Below, piece by piece: positions 36,466-46,151 of a stretch of 64,000 nucleotides of DNA; position 1 is the first letter of the stretch; the number at the start of each line of letters is the position of its first letter. The DNA lies in assembly GCF_028769735.1 (NCBI RefSeq), contig NC_088169.1, positions 45,847,229 to 45,911,228 on the forward strand, in the 5' to 3' direction. Source of the stretch: Zonotrichia leucophrys gambelii (taxonomy: Eukaryota; Chordata; Aves; Passeriformes; Passerellidae). The notes beneath the pieces are model-generated. The model did no database searches, was not told where the DNA came from, and saw only the letters and a program-made list of their open reading frames with translations. The position numbers and the translations under genes were made by a program.

Positions 36466-36904
36466 TGATTTTTTTTTTCCTAATCCATAATGTGAAACTC
36501 CTTGGGTGCAACTTGAGGCCATTTCCTCGTCTTTTCACTTGAGACATGGCAGAAGAGACTGATCCCACTTCACTACAATCTCCTTTCAGATAATTGTATA
36601 GAGCAGTGAGGTTCCACCTGGGCCTTCTCTTCTCCAGACCAAGCAATCCCAGTTACCTCAGTCACTCCCACAAGAGGTTTTCTTTGACCCTTCATCACCA
36701 TTGTTGCCCATGTCTGGACACAGTCCAGCATCTCAATGTCCTTTTTGAAGTGGGTGGCCCAAAACTGAACACAACACTTGATGTGTCGCCTCACCAGTAT
36801 ATTAACCTTGATACAGTTCAGGATGCCACTGGCCTTCTTCATCACCTGGGAACACACAGGCTCATGCTCAGCTGTGCATCAACCAGCATCCACAAGTCCC
36901 TTTC
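36466..36904 (-). mobile_element. CR1 LINE, 3' part of interrupted copy
   Basis: The plus strand shows the antisense of avian CR1: 'gcaacttgaggccatttcctcg', 'cttgagacatggcagaagag', 'cttctcttctccagacc', 'catcaccattgttgcccat', 'caggatgccactggccttct', 'ccagcatccacaagtcccttt'. It stops exactly at the left target duplication of the provirus and continues at 46146. The element is old, with several indels, and its extreme 3' end is missing or too diverged to see. Short open frames here (36573-36857 and 36594-36929) are CR1 remnants, not genes. Confidence 0.8.
36899..36904. repeat. Left target-site duplication CCTTTC
   Basis: The six bases before the LTR at 36905 equal the six bases after the other LTR (46146-46151). 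A 6-bp duplication is what alpha- and betaretroviral integrases produce. Its survival without change agrees with a young insertion and shows that this provirus did not arise by recombination between two proviruses. Confidence 0.95.
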
Positions 36905-37590
36905 TGCGCTAGGGCGTACGCGGCCCTAAATCCGGCTAGCTCGAGGGGTGAGAAGGCCAACGCCCCTGCGCATAGGAAGCCAGCTCCCTTCGGCGTCTTG
37001 GCCTCAGGCTGGGCTGGAGGAAGAGCTCGGAGTTGCGCACACGAGACGAATAAGGAGGTGACCACTTGCTGGGGGTGAACAGTCGGTTTATTGGGTGATC
37101 CGGAGGCACCAACAAGGAGGGGCACCAACCAGCAAATGGCCCCGAACAGGGGGAGCGACAAGGTTTTATAGGGAAGGGGAGGAGAGAGGAGGGGAGCCCA
37201 GCTATCCAATGGGGAAACTCAAAGGGAGGTACTGAACGTAACTGACATACACTAGAAACCAATGAATACAAAGTAAAGGAGGGGCCCCGGGACCACAGCC
37301 AATCACAACCCCCAGAGAGAAGAAGGTTCTCGAAACCTGGGAGGAGTGGGGGATGATTGACTGTGCCCAGGGAGGAGAAAAACATCTACTTATAAGGTGG
37401 GATGAGGGAGGAGCGGTCATACAAACTGTAACATTAGCAACTAAAAATAGCACGGTAACTAGGCAACTTAACTGACAAGGAGGCAGTGGCGGGAAAAACT
37501 GGGGAGAGAGGAACCATTTACAAAGAACAAAAGAGGGTACATTACATAAAATGGGGGAGTAAACTGAGAAACTTAAAACACACTACAACA
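36905..37590 (-). repeat. 3' LTR of the provirus
   Basis: 686 bp, starting TG and ending CA on the minus strand (TGTTGTAG... to ...GCGCA). It is identical to the LTR at 45460-46145 except at 36910 (T here, G at 45465 on the plus strand), six bases from the U5 end. It holds the same TATAAAA (37164-37170) and AATAAA (37087-37092) signals on the minus strand, of which the AATAAA is the one used to end viral transcripts. Inverted CCAAT boxes lie in U3 at 37206, 37259 and 37299. Confidence 0.97.
37087..37092 (-). terminator. Polyadenylation signal AATAAA in 3' LTR
   Basis: The plus strand has tttatt, so the minus strand reads AATAAA, 72 bases beyond the TATA box. A GT-rich stretch follows within 30 bases. 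This is the expected end signal for proviral transcripts. Confidence 0.8.
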
Positions 37591-37603
37591 TCTCCCGTTT
37601 CTT
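37591..37603 (-). promoter_or_regulatory. Polypurine tract
   Basis: Directly upstream of the 3' LTR the minus strand reads AAGAAACGGGAGA and then the LTR's TG. Such a tract primes plus-strand DNA synthesis in retroviruses. One C interrupts the purines. Confidence 0.85.
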
Positions 37604-37639
37604 AACAAATTAAATAAAGAAAACAGGAATGTCCGTAAC

Positions 37640-37957
37640 TCAAAAAGGAGGTGTCCGCGGCCGGTCCTGCCAATCTTCGCCTTCTTCGAGCTGGAGTTCG
37701 CCAGCCCACAGATGTTCTTGGGGCGGCTCGGTTGACCCCTCCTCGTCTGCAGCTCTTTCGGCCTCTGAGGAGAGGTCTTCCAGCTCGAAAGGTTCCTCTT
37801 GGGGAATTGTGGCATGATTGGCAGCCATAGTTGTGGCCCTGGCTATTAATTTTTGGACCAAACCGCGGATCAACATGAACAAAACTAAAAGTACAATCAA
37901 ACTCAAAACAATCTTAGAAACTGATTCTAAAACTGAACTGGCCCACCCGCTGAGGCC
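37640..37957 (-). pseudogene. env: Env membrane anchor and tail, downstream of a stop
   Basis: This segment is in the same frame as env and follows its TAG at 37958-37960 directly, with no further stop until 37640. It begins with a membrane-proximal stretch, then a hydrophobic segment (IVLSLIVLLVLFMLI, around 37923-37879) expected to span the membrane, then a charged, Glu-rich cytoplasmic tail of about 75 residues ending before the polypurine tract. The tail has ELEDL and LQLEEGE acidic patches. It is the C-terminal part of the transmembrane subunit, separated from the rest by a single nonsense codon. It would be translated only by readthrough. Confidence 0.85.
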
Positions 37958-39091
37958 CTAACTCTTGAAGATGTCTCCCAGCCAGTCTGATGTTTCTTGC
38001 TTGACCTGATGGACGAGGTCTTGTAGTCTTTTTATTGAGTGCCTGGCGTCCTCGGCTCTGGAGGACAGGTTCATGCAGCAGAGGCCCTCAAACTCCTCAC
38101 AGTGATGGTGATGAAGCAGCAATAGAAAATCTATTGCTGCCCTGTTCTGGAGTGTCGCTTGCCTTGTTATTTCCTCGTCTGTAAGGAGGTCGTATAGTGC
38201 GGCTGAAGTAAGATTGGCTTGTTTAGCCACCCAACACTCTAGGCGGCCCAATTCACCTAGAGATTTGGCTACCGATACCCAAGGCAACAAGATGGTAAAG
38301 GCAACCGACTTTGAATGGGACCAATGAGTAATTTCATCATCACAGTCCTCAGTGAGATCTTTAAGATCTCTTTTGGATCTAGCCAATTCGGATGTGATGT
38401 TGGTCTTTTTCCAATTAATAATTTGGGTGACGTTGGGGGTAAACAGCGTCAGCCGACCAAAGGTGCACGGCCCTCCGACTAGACCAGAGGGGATGCCTGC
38501 CCACGCTCGGTCGCCACAAATCAAAAACACCCCTCTTGGAAGGGCATAAGGGGTCCGCTTGGTGGTGGTAGGGCCGACGATCTTCAAAACGGCCCGACAC
38601 CACCGGTCCGCTTGATATTCTTTCTTTGCTTGCAGGACCACCTCAGTGCCCTTCTCGATGGGGGTAAGTGTATAATCAAACTGAAAACAAATAGTAGAAT
38701 TGGCAGAACCGAGTAGATGTAATTCTGTGGGCTCGGAGGGCGCAGGATCCAGCCTCGCCACTCCGTCTCTCCAGGCATTACTGGGTTCAAAACCAGGTAG
38801 GAAAGTAAGGCTCCGGGCCAAAATAGGGGAAAAGGTAGACTGAAAGGCAGGGGGGAACTCTCCTGGAGAGAAAGGGATCCCCACAAGGCAGGACGACATC
38901 GGGTCCTCTGCAGCGCCGGTGTCCAGGCAGATGCTGTCCTGTCCTAGCGATTGAGCCAAGGCACGCCAGACGTTAACTTTTGGCTGGGGAATGACCCACG
39001 GCTCCGTAGGTGGCAGAAGGAGTCCGCAGGTCGTCAGCATCAGCAACATCAGACAAGGGTTGGGAGCTAGCGTTGTCAAAGCGGGGGCCAT
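37958..39091 (-). CDS. env: Env, SU and truncated TM (anchor lost)
   Basis: I chose the ATG at 39091, 15 bases after a good splice acceptor; the frame is open to 39172, but no earlier ATG precedes it after the acceptor. The product is 377 residues. It starts with a hydrophobic signal peptide (LMLLMLTTCGLLL). SU carries N-glycosylation sites NST, NVT and NIT. A furin-type site RSKR lies at residues 238-241. TM follows with two cysteines (250 and 286) enclosing a hydrophobic internal fusion segment, a heptad-like region, and the cysteine motif CEEFEGLCC (CX6CC) at 331-339. This layout is typical of alpharetroviral envelopes; no CXXC is seen in SU. TAG ends the frame just before the membrane anchor, so the predicted product would be secreted, not anchored. 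Four consecutive histidines precede the CX6CC motif, which is odd. Confidence 0.9.
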   Translation of the reverse strand: MAPALTTLAPNPCLMLLMLTTCGLLLPPTEPWVIPQPKVNVWRALAQSLGQDSICLDTGAAEDPMSSCLVGIPFSPGEFPPAFQSTFSPILARSLTFLPGFEPSNAWRDGVARLDPAPSEPTELHLLGSANSTICFQFDYTLTPIEKGTEVVLQAKKEYQADRWCRAVLKIVGPTTTKRTPYALPRGVFLICGDRAWAGIPSGLVGGPCTFGRLTLFTPNVTQIINWKKTNITSELARSKRDLKDLTEDCDDEITHWSHSKSVAFTILLPWVSVAKSLGELGRLECWVAKQANLTSAALYDLLTDEEITRQATLQNRAAIDFLLLLHHHHCEEFEGLCCMNLSSRAEDARHSIKRLQDLVHQVKQETSDWLGDIFKS

Positions 39092-39104
39092 TTGGGGAGA
39101 TGTA

Positions 39105-39124
39105 ACTGAAATGAAAAGAGAGCG
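39105..39124 (-). promoter_or_regulatory. Predicted env splice acceptor
   Basis: The minus strand reads a pyrimidine-rich tract CTCTCTTTTCATTTCAG ending at 39106, with the first exon base at 39105. The env ATG lies at 39091. Tract, CAG and spacing all fit a retroviral subgenomic acceptor. It lies inside the last codons of pol or just after its stop, as is usual. Confidence 0.6.
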
Positions 39125-39141
39125 GTAAAAGTATATGGAAA

Positions 39142-42100
39142 TCACAGAAATGGTTCCTCTCCAAACAACCAATTTAAATAAAACATGCGAGGGGTAACGG
39201 TTGGAGCTGGGGGGGAATAGGAGGAAAGGTGGTACAAGAGGTCAAGGGGTGGAGGAGAAGCTGGAGGGGAGGGTTCTTCAAAAACAGGGGGAAGCTCAGG
39301 AGAATAGGAAGACGGTTGGTGGTGTTGCTTCCTTCGCCGACGCCAACACGCTTGCCGGACCTGCGGTACTGCCTCTGTCTTGGTCCTCTGCTTCGGGACG
39401 AAGGGCCTGACCCACTTAGATGGAACCCACTTGGGGCCTGAGGGAGTGGACACGCAAGCGTATCCCCTCCCCCAAGTCACCAAGTCAAAGGGGCCCTCCG
39501 TCCGCCAGGTCTCCGGATCCTTTACAAGAACCGGCGGCCTGGCTTTGGGCTGCAGCTGCTGGTGACTGCCGAAATGCCGGACCACTGGAGGATTTTGGCT
39601 GTCAAAAGAGCAATTCAGAAAATTGAGGGTGTAAAGAGCTCTTGACAGCCGGACGTGGGGGGTCTCCACCTTCATTGCCGGTTGTTGTCGGGACAGGATC
39701 TTTTTGAGGCTCTGGTGGGCCCTTTCCACCATGGCTTGGCCTGTCGGGGAATAGGGGATGCCGGTTTTATGAACTATTCCCCATTGTTGCAGGAAGCTCC
39801 GCAGTTCCTTGGAAGTGTACGCAGGGCCGTTGTCTGTTTTTAGGACCCTAGGGATGCCCAAGACAGCGAATGCTTGAAGCAGATGCTTCTGAACATCCGC
39901 TGCCTTTTCACCTGTGTGGGCAGAAGCGTAGATAGCTCCGGAGAAGGTATCGACTGAGACATGGACGCAACACAATCGACCGAAAGATGGGATGTGTGTT
40001 ACGTCCATCTGCCACACCTCACAGCTTGCCAGCCCTCGGGGGTTAACCCCCGAGGCCACGGTAGGCATTTGGTCATGCTGGCATTGGGGACATGTGGCCA
40101 CAATCGCCTTGGCCTGCTCCTGCGTCAGATTGAATTGACGAACCAGGCCAGGCGCATTTTGATGGAACAGTTGGTGGCTGATCTTAGCCTGACCGAACAC
40201 ATCTGGGAGAGGGGCTTGCGAAACAGCAGCCGCGGCCAAAGAATCGGCACGACGGTTGCCTTCCGCAATGAACCCCGGCAGGTCTGTGTGTGATCTCACA
40301 TGCATGACATAAAATGGATGCTCGCGGTGGGAGACCAACTCGACGAGCCTGTTCAACAATTCAAATAATCTTTTGTTCGTGACCTCTTGAAGAACTGCTG
40401 ACTCAGCTCGGGACACTACACCTGCAACATACGCAGAATCTGTGACCAAATTGAAAGGTCCAGGGAATCTCTGGAATGCCCTGACGACTGCGTCCAACTC
40501 AGCAACCTGTGGAGAGCCCTCCACAACAGCAACATCGGTCTCCCACTGCTGAGTTTGAGGATCCTTCCAAGTCATCACTGACTTGTGGGATGCTCTAGAC
40601 GCGTCCGTAAAAACTGTCAAATCATCCAGTGGCTCCCTGCTCTGAACCTTCTTCAATGATAATTTGAACTCCGAATTGAATAATTTGTGGGCCGGCCGAT
40701 CTACTGCGATGCGCCCAGTGTAGCTGTCAAGTGCAAACTGAAGATATTCATTAGTTTGCAGCAGTTCTTCAAAGGTCTTTAATTTTAATTGGCCCGATTC
40801 CAATTCAATTGGAATATGGATGCATGAGAAATCACACCCTGCAAGCTCCCTGATCCTCGATCTTGCCTTGAGGATCAGTTCGGCTACCAACTCCTGTGGC
40901 CGTGTCATTCTTTTGGACCGATGGTGGCTCAGGAAGACCCACTCTATGATTAAGAGCTTCTCTCCTGAGCCTTGGTCCTTCGGACTGTCGTCCCACTGAT
41001 GGATGATGCCATGAAGATGTGGCAATTTTCCCAGCACTATAAATTTGAATGGCAGGCCCGGATGGTAACGATGGGCCTGCCTGGTCGAAATAGCTTTTTG
41101 TACCCTCTCCAAGGCCACCTCAGCCTCTGGGGTAAGAGCCCTAGGGGAACTGAGCCCCTCTCCCCCTTTCAACAAATTGAAAAGGGGGGCTAGGTCTTCG
41201 GTTGAAATGCCCAGCCAGGGTCTCACCCAATTCAAAGACCCACACAGTTGATGGACATCTGCTAGGGTCTGGACTTTTGTCCTAATAGCCAATTTTTGCG
41301 GAACAATGGTCCGCTTTGTAATTTCAAGGCCCAGGTATTTCCAAGGTGGCATCCGCTGAATTTTGTCCTGCTGGAGCTCGAACCCTGCAGCAACCAACGC
41401 ATTGGTTGTCAGGTCAAGCGCATGGGCAAGCAGACTGTGGTCGGGCGCACACACGAGGATGTCGTCCATATAATGGTGAACAATGACGGCATCCCCGAGG
41501 GCTGTACGGATGGGTGACAGCAGCGAAGCGACATACCATTGGCAGATCACAGGGCTGTTCTTCATGCCCTGTGGAAGCACCCGCCAATGATAGCGCTTGG
41601 CTGGGGACTCACAGTTCACGGACGGAACTGTGAACGCAAAGCGCGGAGCATCGTCAGGGTGAAGGGGAATTTGGAAGAAGCAATCTTTTATATCGATTAC
41701 AGCCAAATTCCAATTTTGGGGGAGCATTGCTGGGGAGGGCATCCCTGGTTGAAGAGGACCCATCTCAACTATTAAATCGTTAATTTTGCGGAGGTCGGTC
41801 AGGAGTCGCCACTTGTCTTTGTTGGGCTTCTTGATGACAAACACTGGGGAGTTCCAAGGTGACATGGTCTCCTCCAGGTTGCCTTTCAGTAGCTGCTCCT
41901 GAACGAGCTCATTGAGCGCCTTTAATTTTTGCTTATTGAGTGGCCACTGCTTGACCTGTACTGGTTCATCAGAAAGCCAATTCAGCTTCCAGGTCCGGCG
42001 CTCCTCAGTGGCCACTGCCCGAAAAACCTGGGGAGCCTTCGGAAGGTCAATTTTGGCTCCCCACTGGGCCAGTAGGTCTCTTCCCCAGAGAGGCTCTGTA

Positions 42101-42888
42101 TAATCCAAAACAAACGGGCGTATCGAGGCCAATTGCCCGTCGGGCCCCTTAATTTGTACAATGCTCTTGGATTGGTTTGCCAATTGAAGGCCCCCAACAC
42201 CAGAGATCGTGCCCGCAGCGCTTTGCAAGCCCCAATGTGACGGCCACTCCCGAGAGGGAATGATCGTCACATCTGCACCTGTGTCCAAAAGACCCCTCAC
42301 TATCTTCTTGTCCCCGCCCAACGAAAGTTGACAGGTCAGGCGGGGCTTTTCCCTCCCCACTAGTTGTGCCCAGGCCACGGTCGGAGGCGATGTCTTCTCC
42401 GACGAAATCGTCCAGGGATCTTCTTCTGGCACTGGGATGGCCTGGGCAATGACCTGTCCCTTGGGGAGGAAAAGTGGGGGTCGGACACAGTACAGCCCTA
42501 CCGCGAAACGGTCCCGGTCGGTAGTTACTAGACCAGGGACGATGTGGATGTCTCGCGGTGTGTGCTTGGTGTCTCCGACAACGGTCCACCTGCAACGTCC
42601 CAGTTTCCTCCAGCGACCCGGATGTTGCAGGTCGACAGACACCAGCTGGATGTTACTGCTAGGGATGTAAAGGTCCCTAGTCAGCTGCAGCCTGTATGGA
42701 GAAGCAGAGGACATGGTGTTAATTGCAGGTACAGCACCACAGGTAGATAAGGTCACGTCTGAGAAATACGTCAAATCCGGCAAAGCGTATGTCGGCGGTC
42801 CTCTCCTGTCTCCTCCCTCCCCGCAGGTTGTTGAACAGCCCGCCGTACTTTTGTCATCGCGCAGGGAGGGGCTGCGCTCCAAACTTAG
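39142..42888 (-). CDS. pol: Pro-Pol polyprotein (dUTPase-like, PR, RT, RNase H, IN)
   Basis: One uninterrupted frame, entered by -1 frameshifting at the gag stop. It has no own start; residues are counted here from a TTG codon at 42882. A dUTPase-like stretch spans about 60-152. The aspartic protease has its active site LLDTGAD at 198-204. Reverse transcriptase (about 300-560) has LPQGMKNSP at 436-444 and YMDD at 471-474. RNase H has D760, E795, D815 and D880. Integrase has the zinc-binding pair H903/H907 with C931/C934 and catalytic D960, D1017 and E1053. The integrase C-terminal domain includes GRGYACV (1138-1144) and [10 protein letters not shown]. An extra Pro/Ser-rich tail of about 80 residues follows. 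All catalytic residues are present, so the enzymes may be functional. Motif style is betaretrovirus-like. The 3' end lies just before the env splice acceptor. Confidence 0.95.
42815..42877 (-). promoter_or_regulatory. Candidate frameshift-stimulating pseudoknot
   Basis: Ten bases after the slip site the minus strand has GCGCAG (42877-42872), a 7-nt C-rich loop, and CTGCGC (42864-42859): a perfect 6-bp stem. Six loop bases (CCCTCC) can pair with GGAGGG at 42820-42815, giving an H-type pseudoknot with a 38-nt second loop. Spacing and shape are as expected for retroviral -1 frameshifting. The fold is my hand pairing. Confidence 0.6.
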
Positions 42889-42894
42889 TTTTTT
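42888..42894 (-). promoter_or_regulatory. -1 frameshift slippery site A AAA AAC
   Basis: The last two sense codons of gag are AAA AAC, preceded by GCA and followed by TAA, so A AAA AAC sits in the correct phase directly before the stop. A one-base backward slip enters the pol frame, which is otherwise open. The same heptamer type is used at gag-pro junctions of betaretroviruses. Confidence 0.9.
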
Positions 42895-44118
42895 GCCTCC
42901 TTGTTCTCCTCCCTTTCCCGCTTCCGCCTGTACTCGAGGTAATCAAGGCGCATCGGGCACTGGGGCATCCAATGCCCGAGTTTGCCACAAAGATGGCAGG
43001 GGTGGGTGGTTGATGACCTTCTGCCGGACCCAGGTGTTGGGGGTCCGGCAACGGGGGCAGCTTCTGCTTCCATGAAGTCCGGCTCGGGGCATTCAGCAAG
43101 AGCCACAGATGTTCTCTTGGGCCGTGATGCCAGGGAGACCTGACGCACCACGACCTCAATCATGGCCTCTATCGTGGGCTGGGGACTTCGAGGGAGAGTT
43201 TTTATAGCCTTGCGGCACTCAGCGTTGGCATTGCTGAATGCCATCCGCTGAAGCATCCTCTCCCTGTCATCATCCCCGAGCGCCTGCGCCTCCACATATC
43301 GGTAGAGGCGCTCGATAAAGGCCATGTATGGCTCTTGCGCTCCTTGCCGGACCTCATCCTCCTCCCATTGGGAGGTCACCACCTCCAGCTTGAAGAAGGC
43401 CCGCTCAGCTGCCCGGGCGGTCTCTACAAGCTGGGAGGGGAATAAGGCCTTCGCCTGAGCTGCCCCCTCTGCCCACTGTCCCTCACCCAAAAGGTGTTCC
43501 TGGGTGATTACCAGACCATCCGCATCATGAGACATTGCAGGATTCCCCCAAATATTTGGGAGAACCTCCAATATCTCCCTCCTCCATTCCCCCACCCAGA
43601 CCTTAAACTCCATGGGCCTAGCAAGGCTGGAGAAGAGGGCCCTCAAGTCAGCCGGCACCAGATCTCCCTGTGCAAGGGCATTGCGGAGCATACCCCGGAA
43701 GTACTCTGACCCCCGGGAGTAGTCCTTCTGCGCCTTGCACAGCTCCTTGATCCGGGCCTGTGCTAAAGGCACCCACTGGGCCTGAGGGGTCCCCTCCCCA
43801 CTCAGGTGGTAGGTAACCGGAGCGGCTTCCAACAAGGGCGCCTGCTCCGGCTTCCGGTCATCCACCCCCCCCCGCCCGGAACACCAAGCGTGGGAACCGG
43901 AAGGAGGAGCGTGGGAACCGGAACTGGAGGAGGTTGAGGCGGGGTCTGGCAATGACGCAGGGTGAGGGAGTGGGCGTGACCAACCACCCCTCTCCGCCCC
44001 CTGGGTGACGCTCGGAGGCGGAGGGAAGTACAGAGGCGGAGCGGGGGAGGAGCGAATGGGGGCTGAGCCGGGGGAGGAGTTCGGGGAGGAGCTGATTGAG
44101 GGGCGGAGGACGGAGGAA

Positions 44119-44130
44119 GGGGGGGGGGGG
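44119..44130. repeat. G12 homopolymer in gag
   Basis: Twelve G on the plus strand (C12 in gag sense). PPxY motifs lie on both sides, in different frames, which makes this run the most likely site of the second gag frame change. A shorter C9 run lies at 43865-43873 and is the alternative site. Confidence 0.9.
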
Positions 44131-44645
44131 AGGGAGGATAGGAGGGAGGGGTAACCGAAAAGGAGGTTGGGTCTGGGGGAAGGAAGGGGTTGGGGCAAGG
44201 GAGGAAGGGGTTAACCGAAGAAGAAGGAGCCCTGGCGGGAACGACCACGTGGCCACCGCCATCTTGGGCTCCCAGGGAGCCATTTTGTGGATCATCAAGA
44301 AACCGAACAACTTTGGTCTTTTCAACTGGGGATTTGGGAACTGGGGTAGAGGGTGAGGAAAGAAGAGGAACCTGGCCAGGGCTCCTCGAAGGGGGAGGCT
44401 GAGCAGGTCGAGGGGGAGCAGGGGAAGGATGGACCCCCTGCCTCTTGTCGGCCTTCAAAATCCCCCTCGAGGGCTCCTGCCTAAGGGAAGAGGGAAAGGA
44501 TTGAGGGGTAAGGGCAACAGAACGAGGGGAACGGGGGGATAAACCAAAACTTGCGGGCCTTTTCTTAGGTTCCCCTGACGAGCGGAGTGCCGCAAGCACT
44601 CTGCCCGCCCAGAATGCCACGGTTGCTAATTTCGTCTCCCGGAAT
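44131..44645 (-). pseudogene. gag: gag MA end and proline-rich linker
   Basis: The open frame continues in a second frame to 43802, but its meaningful part probably ends at the homopolymer near 44130. It is rich in Pro and Ser and carries basic clusters. A PPSY motif (PPxY late domain, used to recruit NEDD4-type ubiquitin ligases for budding) lies at 44138-44149, eight bases before the homopolymer. A conserved-looking stretch (KTKVVRFLDDP) lies in its middle. Low complexity makes domain limits uncertain. Confidence 0.7.
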
Positions 44646-44850
44646 TAACAGCTTCTTCTAATTTGGCCAAAACGGCTGCCCAAAACCGTGGCTGCTTGGC
44701 AAGTTCCGGGGAAACTTCGGGGAACTTTGAAAAGACCCACTTAACTAAAAACTTTAACTCTTGCTTGGGGGCCTTCTGACCACCCCCAAGCAGCAAACCT
44801 TTAACAACATAATATACCTCCTTTTGGGATTTTCCCAAGCCAGCACCCAT
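44626..44850 (-). pseudogene. gag: gag matrix N-terminal part
   Basis: 74 codons from an ATG. The product begins MGAGLGKS, with glycine at position 2 as needed for N-myristoylation and membrane targeting. It continues with a helical, Lys-rich region (KAPKQELKFLVKWVF), as in retroviral MA. TAG closes the frame at 44626-44628. The neighbouring frame continues the protein-like sequence from about 44640 (…AFWAGRVLAALRSS), so the stop is a consequence of a nearby indel rather than a natural end. Confidence 0.8.
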
Positions 44851-44854
44851 GGCT

Positions 44855-44889
44855 CCTTTCTAGTGCAGGAACTGCTGTCACTAGAAAGG
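44855..44889 (-). promoter_or_regulatory. 11-bp stem-loop directly before gag ATG
   Basis: Perfect arms 44855-44865 and 44879-44889 enclose a 13-nt loop. The stem ends four bases before the gag start codon. In the RNA this could act in packaging, dimerisation or start-site control. Role is inferred from place only. Confidence 0.65.
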
Positions 44890-44982
44890 GGGAAAATCCA
44901 CTGGTGGTACAACCACCCGCCTGAAAAATAACAAAAACTAAAACAACAAGCTACTCGCCACCAGCCCCTGCTCCCCCCACTG

Positions 44983-45051
44983 TCCCCAAGTCTGGGGTTT
45001 CAGCAAAGGGCAAAAGGATTTGGGTGGTGGGTCCGGGCCCCAAGTCTGGGG
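44983..45051 (-). promoter_or_regulatory. Duplicated leader stem-loops
   Basis: CCCCAAGTCTGGGG occurs at 44983-44996 and again at 45038-45051. Each copy folds into a 5-bp stem (CCCCA/TGGGG) with a 4-nt loop. Two identical hairpins downstream of the predicted splice donor are placed as packaging-signal elements would be, present only in unspliced RNA. Confidence 0.55.
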
Positions 45052-45213
45052 ATACCGACCCCACAGGAAAGATAAAACAAAAAAGGCGCGGGGGTGAGGA
45101 AGAGCCTCAGGGGAAGAGGGTGGGGGGTAGGTCCCCAATGCAGGGCATGTACCCCTAGGGGAAGGTTAAAAAGGCAGGGGGGAAGTCGGAAAGGTCCCCA
45201 GAGCGGGGCCCGA

Positions 45214-45220
45214 TCTTACC
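45214..45220 (-). promoter_or_regulatory. Predicted major splice donor
   Basis: The minus strand reads TTGGTAAGA with GT at 45219-45218, a good match to the donor consensus at positions +1 to +5. It lies about 220 bases after the primer binding site and upstream of gag, as needed for a spliced env RNA. Confidence 0.45.
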
Positions 45221-45438
45221 AACTGGTGGCGACAGCAAAGGAAAAATCAGGTGGGGGTCTTCGTCTCCGGGGTCGTCCTCACTGGGTGCGAGGGGTCTCG
45301 ATCCCGATCCCCAGGGAGCGCTGCCCCTAAAACAGGGCCTGCTACTACCTGGGGTAGTGCGGCGTCCAAAGGAAACGAAATGTCCAATTCCGAAGGGTCC
45401 GGTGGTCAGCTGTCCAGGTGGTCAGTTGTCCACTTCAG

Positions 45439-45456
45439 GCCCCACGTTGGGCGCCA
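45439..45456 (-). promoter_or_regulatory. Primer binding site, tRNA-Lys type
   Basis: Three bases after the 5' LTR the minus strand reads TGGCGCCCAACGTGGGGC, 18 bases. This is the form complementary to tRNA-Lys(1,2), as known for primate betaretroviruses. Alpharetroviruses use tRNA-Trp, so this supports the betaretrovirus-like assignment of the gag-pol backbone. Confidence 0.9.
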
Positions 45457-45459
45457 CAC

Positions 45460-46145
45460 TGCGCGAGGGCGTACGCGGCCCTAAATCCGGCTAGCTCGAG
45501 GGGTGAGAAGGCCAACGCCCCTGCGCATAGGAAGCCAGCTCCCTTCGGCGTCTTGGCCTCAGGCTGGGCTGGAGGAAGAGCTCGGAGTTGCGCACACGAG
45601 ACGAATAAGGAGGTGACCACTTGCTGGGGGTGAACAGTCGGTTTATTGGGTGATCCGGAGGCACCAACAAGGAGGGGCACCAACCAGCAAATGGCCCCGA
45701 ACAGGGGGAGCGACAAGGTTTTATAGGGAAGGGGAGGAGAGAGGAGGGGAGCCCAGCTATCCAATGGGGAAACTCAAAGGGAGGTACTGAACGTAACTGA
45801 CATACACTAGAAACCAATGAATACAAAGTAAAGGAGGGGCCCCGGGACCACAGCCAATCACAACCCCCAGAGAGAAGAAGGTTCTCGAAACCTGGGAGGA
45901 GTGGGGGATGATTGACTGTGCCCAGGGAGGAGAAAAACATCTACTTATAAGGTGGGATGAGGGAGGAGCGGTCATACAAACTGTAACATTAGCAACTAAA
46001 AATAGCACGGTAACTAGGCAACTTAACTGACAAGGAGGCAGTGGCGGGAAAAACTGGGGAGAGAGGAACCATTTACAAAGAACAAAAGAGGGTACATTAC
46101 ATAAAATGGGGGAGTAAACTGAGAAACTTAAAACACACTACAACA
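45460..46145 (-). repeat. 5' LTR of the provirus
   Basis: 686 bp. On the minus strand U3 runs from 46145, with inverted CCAAT boxes (45761, 45814, 45854), to TATAAAA at 45725-45719. R starts near 45695, the AATAAA signal is at 45647-45642, and U5 ends in GCGCA at 45460. It differs from the 3' LTR at 45465 only. With both LTRs nearly identical the insertion is young on an evolutionary scale; I give no date because no rate for this host is known to me here. Confidence 0.97.
45719..45725 (-). promoter_or_regulatory. TATA box of the proviral promoter
   Basis: TATAAAA on the minus strand, with GC-rich flanks and CCAAT-type boxes upstream. A transcription start about 25-30 bases downstream (near 45695) is inferred. 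Confidence 0.75.
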
Positions 46146-46151
46146 CCTTTC
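46146..46151. repeat. Right target-site duplication CCTTTC
   Basis: It matches 36899-36904 exactly. The CR1 sequence continues across the site: 'caagtccctttc' on the left is followed by 'tgctgagcaactctcaagcc' on the right once one copy of the duplication is counted. Confidence 0.95.

What the first reader, a model, noticed from the sequence alone, without database searches (positions are those of the whole stretch)
36899..46151. Young recombinant provirus: betaretrovirus-like gag-pro-pol with alpharetrovirus-type env
The Lys-type primer site, A AAA AAC slip site, protease in the pol frame, dUTPase-like segment and RT motifs are betaretrovirus-like. Env has a furin-type site, an internal fusion segment between two cysteines, CX6CC and no CXXC in SU, which together is the alpharetroviral layout. 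The combination in a near-intact, young avian element suggests a chimeric lineage that was recently infectious in this host.
Basis: partly seen in the sequence, partly recalled or inferred. Interest (0 to 1): 0.8.

Follow-up and report, generated by a model that had tools for sequence, protein, structure and literature searches.

The report
Songbird provirus with mismatched envelope
A very recently inserted songbird retrovirus copy pairs the core genes of a betaretrovirus-like lineage with the entry protein type of chicken leukosis viruses, and several other songbirds carry the same pairing, although this copy itself looks broken.

Summary
The element is real and its ends are exact: a minus-strand provirus at 36905-46145 with two 686-bp LTRs that differ at one base, a 6-bp target duplication, a Lys-type primer site, an A AAA AAC slip site, protease in the pol frame and a dUTPase-like domain. 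Its closest Env relative (98.9% identical) is from Zonotrichia albicollis, a sparrow. The pol/env conflict holds. IN, PR and CA score higher with betaretroviral than alpharetroviral structures, and RT scores best with HERV-K. The RT+IN tree rejects membership of Alpharetrovirus (AU p=5e-5). Env has the alpharetroviral 'avian gamma-type' layout and its TM groups with ASLV. Corrections: (1) the copy is not near-intact: gag lies in three frames and env stops before the anchor; (2) the chimera is old: gene models of six songbird genera show the same pairing and RT and TM distances correlate, so only the insertion is young; (3) placement inside Betaretrovirus is unresolved, and some tests do not exclude a broader alpha-side position. 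A 2013 review knew this Env type only from alpharetroviruses. My searches found no report of this pairing, but three relevant papers were not held. New variant of a known kind.

The parts
46146..46151 (-). target site duplication, 5' side (GAAAGG)
   Evidence: same 6 bases outside both LTRs
45460..46145 (-). 5' LTR, 686 bp, TGTT...CGCA, with TATAA and CCAATAAA stretches
45440..45456 (-). primer binding site TGGCGCCCAACGTGGGG (tRNA-Lys1,2 type, name recalled)
44629..44850 (-). gag, matrix-like start (MGAG...), frame closes at its end
   Evidence: 44% identical to the start of P0128; no Pfam match
44183..44638 (-). gag, proline-rich middle part, in a second frame
43155..43778 (-). gag capsid (Gag_p24 N and C domains), in a third frame (open stretch 42885-44210)
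42957..42998 (-). one CCHC zinc knuckle (nucleocapsid)
42888..42894 (-). A AAA AAC slip site, followed directly by the gag stop TAA
39142..42942 (-). pro-pol open frame, 1266 codons plus stop, one frame for dUTPase-like, PR, RT, RNase H, IN
42424..42729 (-). dUTPase-like domain upstream of the protease, catalytic motif degenerate (inferred)
42049..42336 (-). aspartic protease, DTGA
41107..41835 (-). reverse transcriptase and thumb, YMDD at 41461-41472
40222..40623 (-). RNase H
39403..40188 (-). integrase (zinc, core and C-terminal domains)
37961..39091 (-). env reading frame, 377 codons to an in-frame stop; SU 39091-38369
38369..38380 (-). furin-type site RSKR
38234..38344 (-). internal fusion segment between two cysteines
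38075..38101 (-). CX6CC of TM (immunosuppressive-type stretch just upstream, 38114-38152; name recalled)
37640..37957 (-). stretch after the env stop, same frame, with a hydrophobic anchor-like run and a tail
   Evidence: read apart from the part before the stop
36905..37590 (-). 3' LTR, 686 bp
36899..36904 (-). target site duplication, 3' side (GAAAGG)

Best explanation
This is a recently inserted, now defective copy of a class II endogenous retrovirus lineage of oscine songbirds. The lineage's gag-pro-pol is betaretrovirus-like and its env is of the alpharetroviral ('avian gamma') type. The env was acquired by recombination before the sampled lineage diversified, or the two viral lines inherited it from a shared source, and it has mostly travelled with its pol since. 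How it works: Lys-tRNA primed reverse transcription (inferred from the primer site); one -1 frameshift at A AAA AAC to make Gag-Pro-Pol (inferred from the site); integration by a beta-like integrase with 6-bp staggered cuts (6-bp duplication shown); entry in intact members by an Env that furin cleaves, whose SU and TM are probably disulfide-linked, with a Cys-flanked internal fusion loop (inferred from ASLV-type motifs). This copy either arose from an intact relative in the germ line and then decayed in gag and env, or was already defective and was copied with the help of intact relatives (inferred).
For: Structures: IN 253.7 bits to 7usf (MMTV, name recalled) against 166 to 7jn3 (RSV, recalled); CA 63.3 bits to HERV-K against 28.8 to RSV; PR 55.7 bits to 6s1v and 55.2 to 1nso (M-PMV, recalled) against 35.6 to the myeloblastosis-associated protease; RT 251 bits to 7sr6 (HERV-K, recalled), then HIV-2 at 151.7, no alpharetroviral RT among the 60 of 202 rows shown. 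In the RT+IN tree (35 rows) a 100/100 branch of length 1.03 puts the lineage with HERV-K, MMTV and reptile rows, away from alpharetroviruses, TgERV-F-like rows and LPDV. Path lengths from the window are HERV-K 2.04, MMTV 2.17 (each present with one domain only), LPDV 3.28, ALV-like 3.83. TM: best PDB match ASLV, E 1.8e-15, then filovirus GP2 from 8.5e-4, and 4jf3 (M-PMV, recalled) at 0.33; Pfam Avian_gp85, E 5.6e-14, over the last 48 residues or so of SU; TM tree joins it with ASLV and Coturnix, apart from gamma-type TM at 100/100. Pairing: 17 of 290 fetched proteins hold RT or IN and this TM in one gene model; 15 are passerine with a clear TM, 14 of them with pol upstream of TM. All 7 rows with this env in the RT tree fall in the window's clade. 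RT and TM distances correlate over 9 elements, r=0.75, 0 of 20000 permutations. Recent insertion: 1 difference in 686 bp.
Against: On RT alone, and on RT+IN, a tree that places the lineage with alpharetroviruses and TgERV-F-like rows (and LPDV in the second) against the beta and reptile rows is not rejected (p=0.133; p=0.112); IN alone rejects it (p=0.0079). In the first RT tree two reptile-side rows join the alpha side instead (91/71), unlike in IN and RT+IN. In CA, M-PMV's C-terminal fragment scores no higher than RSV (28.8 bits each), and in PR tethered HIV proteases score above the alpharetroviral ones. The TM join with ASLV and Coturnix rests on two alpharetroviral rows (fork support 90/43 and 85/73). 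Env-pol links in other birds come from automatic gene models that can fuse neighbours (P0115 has the parts in reversed order). Direction of the env transfer is not shown.
Confidence: 0.8

Rival explanations
1. The env was not captured from alpharetroviruses. This songbird lineage, or a relative, is the older owner of the avian gamma-type env, and alpharetroviruses took it from there. (This differs from the best explanation only in direction.)
For: Passerine TMs are diverse and form a sister set to the two alpharetroviral TMs rather than nesting inside them. The pairing is found even with the most divergent RT row that bears this env, P0235, 34% different from the window.
Against: Only two alpharetroviral TM rows were at hand; root and nesting are weakly supported.
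Confidence: 0.3
2. A fresh, unique recombinant formed recently in this host.
For: Very young insertion.
Against: Same pairing in gene models of Passer, Hirundo, Zosterops, Lonchura, Poecile and Sylvia, with RT and TM distances that correlate.
Confidence: 0.04
3. No conflict: the whole element is an outlying alpharetrovirus with a few betaretrovirus-like traits, like TgERV-F's pol.
For: RT-only and RT+IN AU tests of a broad alpha-side grouping are not significant (p=0.133; p=0.112).
Against: Grouping with genus Alpharetrovirus itself is rejected, p=5.45e-05 (this test was framed after the tree was seen). IN rejects the broad grouping, p=0.0079. TgERV-F-like rows sit on the other side of a 100/100 branch. 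PR, CA and IN score better with beta than with alpha structures.
Confidence: 0.08

Closest known systems
Passerine 'ERVK' (class II) elements, e.g. the ERVK bursts of Passeriformes in PMC11009239 (passages seen)
   Same: Several Pol relatives in songbirds are named ERVK-type by annotation (e.g. P0192, P0204, P0205), and recent activity fits. That this element belongs to the families counted there is inferred.
   Different: No passage I saw there describes the envelope type.
TgERV-F (Henzy et al. 2014; paper not held; known here through passages of PMC3758190 and PMC10536682)
   Same: Songbird class II recombinant whose env does not match its pol.
   Different: Mirror image: its pol is near alpharetroviruses and its env is mammalian gamma-type. 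Hirundo rows that fit that description (P0264, P0267, P0269: TM, pol on the alpha side) lie across a 100/100 branch from this lineage. The label TgERV-F-like is mine; no TgERV-F sequence was compared.
Alpharetrovirus (ALV/RSV, EAV-HP)
   Same: Env type: internal Cys-flanked fusion segment, CX6CC, no CXXC in SU; 6-bp target duplication (recalled for ALV).
   Different: Pol branch, dUTPase-like domain, protease in pol frame, DTGA, Lys primer site (the alpharetroviral state of the last four is recalled).
Type-D betaretroviruses and PyERV (PMC3758190 passages)
   Same: Betaretrovirus-like gag-pol with a foreign env; Lys-type primer site and dUTPase upstream of protease (recalled for M-PMV).
   Different: Their env is gamma-type, not the avian type; pro and pol frames differ in M-PMV (recalled).

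Membership tests
Avian gamma-type Env (Henzy and Johnson 2013) | CX6CC in TM | tested here: met
   38075-38101; 109 of the 120 relatives listed
Avian gamma-type Env (Henzy and Johnson 2013) | internal fusion peptide about nine residues after the cleavage site, flanked by two cysteines | tested here: met
   RSKR ends at residue 241, Cys at 250 and 286; 106 of 109 relatives with CX6CC have two or more Cys in the 110 residues upstream
Avian gamma-type Env (Henzy and Johnson 2013) | SU lacks CXXC (PMC9967133 passage) | tested here: met
   none in SU; 2 of 109 relatives have a CXXC upstream of TM, one (P0035) far upstream in a pol-fused model, the other not looked at
Alpharetrovirus | RT/IN inside the genus clade | tested here: not met
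   AU p=5.45e-05
Alpharetrovirus | protease encoded in the gag frame (recalled) | tested here: not met
   protease in the 1266-codon pol frame
Alpharetrovirus | avian gamma-type env | tested here: met
Betaretrovirus | IN and RT+IN closer to beta than to alpha references | tested here: met
   for RT alone the order is open or 90/81
Betaretrovirus | RT/IN inside the genus clade | tested here: inconclusive
   grouping with HERV-K and three unnamed rows: 90/81 on RT; not the best tree on RT+IN, AU p=0.199; reptile-side rows intervene
Betaretrovirus | dUTPase domain upstream of protease (recalled) | tested here: met
   as a fold: profile best match M-PMV DU, weak, E 0.056; model pLDDT 78; the 50 Foldseek matches listed of 807 are all dUTPases
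Betaretrovirus | gag, pro and pol in three frames with two slip sites (recalled) | tested here: not met
   pro and pol share one open frame, with the slip site at its start
Betaretrovirus | tRNA-Lys primer site (recalled) | tested here: met
   45440-45456
TgERV-F | pol next to alpharetroviruses with mammalian gamma-type env | tested here: not met

The most novel reading that the evidence does not exclude
The songbird beta-like lineage is a second, independent class II home of the avian gamma-type env, and possibly the donor from which alpharetroviruses got theirs. Together with TgERV-F (alpha-like pol, gamma env) it would show a three-way exchange of envelopes among retroviruses of birds.
Probability: 0.3. 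Interest if true: 0.75.

Novelty: new variant of a known kind. Interest (0 to 1): 0.55.

Why it matters
[quoted passage not shown] A diverse songbird lineage with the same env type on a betaretrovirus-like backbone gives a concrete candidate for the source or a parallel recipient. It makes the origin of the alpharetroviral env testable with existing bird genomes. It also means env type cannot be read from the 'ERVK' label in songbirds.

Tried and rejected
Viral contigs: no relatives of RT or of the Env alignment were confirmed. No tRNA and no Rfam match at gathering score in the window. Of the 8 open stretches of 110 codons or more listed outside the element, 5 were scanned and have no Pfam match at E 0.1; 3 were not scanned. 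Straight PDB and Pfam searches with the pre-protease segment found nothing; only the profile and the predicted fold showed dUTPase. No Pfam match to the matrix piece. No G-patch was reported after the protease, which proves little. LTR copies elsewhere in the window: none by blastn. The host genome could not be searched: the tool did not complete. Considered and rejected: a fresh unique recombinant; an outlying alpharetrovirus without conflict. The longer LTR alignment of 690 bp showed 2 mismatches, one of which lies outside the LTR. The second structural look at Env lists only syncytin-2 and filovirus chains among its 50 rows, which excludes no other family.
Full report
What is there. On the minus strand, two 686-bp direct repeats (36905-37590 and 45460-46145) start with TG and end with CA, and differ at one base. 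Both are flanked by GAAAGG. The insert is GC-rich (48-55% in the three 4-kb bins that cover it) in a 31-39% GC surrounding. Below the 5' LTR lies TGGCGCCCAACGTGGGG, which I recall as the tRNA-Lys1,2 primer site. With an assumed bird rate of 2e-9 to 3.5e-9 per site and year (recalled), one difference in 686 means about 0.2-0.4 million years; the upper 95% limit at 2e-9 is about 2 million.

Genes. The pro-pol frame is open for 1266 codons and holds protease, RT, thumb, RNase H and the three IN domains. The slip site A AAA AAC stands directly before the gag stop and fits a -1 shift into this frame. Capsid and one zinc knuckle are in the open stretch 42885-44210. The matrix-like start and the proline-rich middle lie in the two other frames, as shown by tblastn with Melospiza and Passer proteins (the Melospiza models also match the leader at 45215-45432 in two frames, which I take for a gene-model artefact). 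gag is thus broken in this copy. env stops in frame after 377 codons, before the membrane anchor. The closest database Env, 98.9% identical over 376 residues, is a 483-residue protein of Zonotrichia albicollis whose cluster has 14 members, so full-length relatives exist. The host is thus most likely that sparrow or a near relative (inference). No mend was attempted.

The pre-protease domain. Sequence searches alone found no dUTPase. A profile of 12 family members has M-PMV dUTPase as its best PDB match at a weak E of 0.056. The predicted structure (pLDDT 78) has only dUTPases among the 50 Foldseek matches listed of 807, best E 8.6e-4, TM-scores 0.44-0.61 by query length. In the printed profile alignment the stretch that faces the Ile-Asp of the M-PMV enzyme is not acidic, so I infer an inactive relic. 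The position upstream of protease is the betaretroviral one (recalled).

Pol placement. PDB scores favour betaretroviral over alpharetroviral chains for IN, CA and PR, and RT scores best with HERV-K; 60 rows were shown in each. The virus names of 7usf, 7sr6, 7jn3, 6s1v and 1nso are recalled. For CA the lead is HERV-K's alone: M-PMV's C-terminal fragment scores 28.8 bits, like RSV. For trees I used 41 of the 129 RT rows of 220 residues or more and 48 of the 117 IN rows of 200 or more, picked by eye for spread, plus references. Rows are called alpharetroviral by their match to RSV integrase (67-100% in the rows used) and one by name (EAV-HP); LPDV is named. RT: the window sits in a passerine clade (98/99) apart from a clade of alpharetroviruses, TgERV-F-like rows and LPDV (96/95) and from a HERV-K clade (99/93); their order is open, and two reptile-side rows join the alpha side at 91/71. 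A reduced RT tree of 34 rows joins the passerine clade with the HERV-K clade at 90/81 and puts a 99/97 branch between these and the alpha side. IN: a 100/100 branch of length 1.6 separates MMTV, reptile and passerine rows from alpharetroviruses, TgERV-F-like rows and LPDV. RT+IN (35 rows): the same split, 100/100. AU tests: lineage with genus Alpharetrovirus, p=5.45e-05; lineage with the whole alpha side, p=0.0079 on IN, but 0.133 on RT without LPDV and 0.112 on RT+IN; lineage with mammalian beta rows only, 0.199. The tests were framed after trees had been seen. So the lineage is not in the alpharetrovirus genus. It lies on the beta side in the best trees, and whether it belongs inside genus Betaretrovirus is open. 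Sharing one frame for pro and pol argues against filing it there.

Env placement. Pfam gives Avian_gp85 over the end of SU. The best PDB match of TM is ASLV at 1.8e-15; filovirus GP2 follows from 8.5e-4. The search gave 352 Env relatives, 120 of them listed. Of these 120, 109 have CX6CC, 106 of the 109 have two or more cysteines in the 110 residues upstream, 34 show an RX[KR]R site there, and 2 have a CXXC upstream of TM. 108 of the 120 rows carry an organism name, and every one is a songbird (order recalled). The Env shares 44% over 207 positions with a Coturnix pol-env protein (P0251) whose TM is of the same type and whose integrase was found with the RSV query; its first 172 residues give no alignment at E 0.01. 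In the TM tree (30 of the 129 TM rows found by phmmer, plus the window, ASLV and three gamma-type rows) the songbird and alpharetroviral TMs stand together against the TgERV-F-like gamma-type at 100/100; inside, ASLV and Coturnix form the sister of the songbird set with modest support.

Pairing. 17 of 290 fetched proteins hold RT or IN and this TM. One is the Coturnix alpharetroviral model, one (P0197) has a weak TM match of 34 residues, and 15 are passerine (Passer, Hirundo, Zosterops, Lonchura, Poecile, Sylvia by the names); P0115 among them has the parts in reversed order and may be a fusion. All 7 rows with this env in the RT tree and all 4 in the IN tree fall in the window's clade, while the 3 IN rows with gamma-type env fall on the alpha side. 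RT and TM distances correlate over 9 elements (r 0.75, 0 of 20000 permutations; without the most divergent row r 0.83, 6 of 20000). These are the window and 8 of the 17; 9 were left out for missing or short parts, reversed order or, for P0251, as alpharetroviral. Host relatedness adds to this correlation. I conclude that env joined this pol before the sampled lineage split, not recently in this host.

Prior knowledge. [quoted passage not shown] PMC10536682 (passages) lists TgERV-F and a 2019 study with alpha-type or gamma-type pol and mammalian env in birds. PMC4272516 (passages) reports an expansion of beta- and gammaretrovirus-like elements in oscines. PMC11009239 (passages) reports ERVK bursts in Passeriformes. 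Passages of PMC9967133, PMC6523648 and PMC6001957 did not mention the pairing. Ten searches showed no paper whose title or opening of abstract describes it; three of them listed only part of their hits (30 of 42, 5 of 9625, 15 of 30), and paywalled journals are mostly absent. Three papers that bear on it are not held. Priority cannot be claimed.

Noticed in passing
[not shown]
   Followed up: partly
P0264, P0267, P0268, P0269, P0275 (Hirundo rustica gene models): Gamma-type TM joined to an integrase of the RSV-like side, as described for TgERV-F: the mirror image of the window's pairing in the same kind of bird (P0264, P0267 and P0269 placed in the IN tree).
   Followed up: partly
P0221, P0224, P0252: Bird gene models named carbonic anhydrase-related protein 10, sorting nexin-14 and CDC14A contain retroviral Pol; probably annotation fusions.
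   Followed up: no
P0286 (Chrysemys picta) and P0289: Turtle and unnamed Pol rows sit next to the songbird lineage in IN and RT+IN trees but on the alpha side in the first RT tree; their env type is unknown and would show whether the avian env came later.
   Followed up: no
42957-42998: Only one CCHC knuckle was found by pattern in the nucleocapsid part.
   Followed up: no
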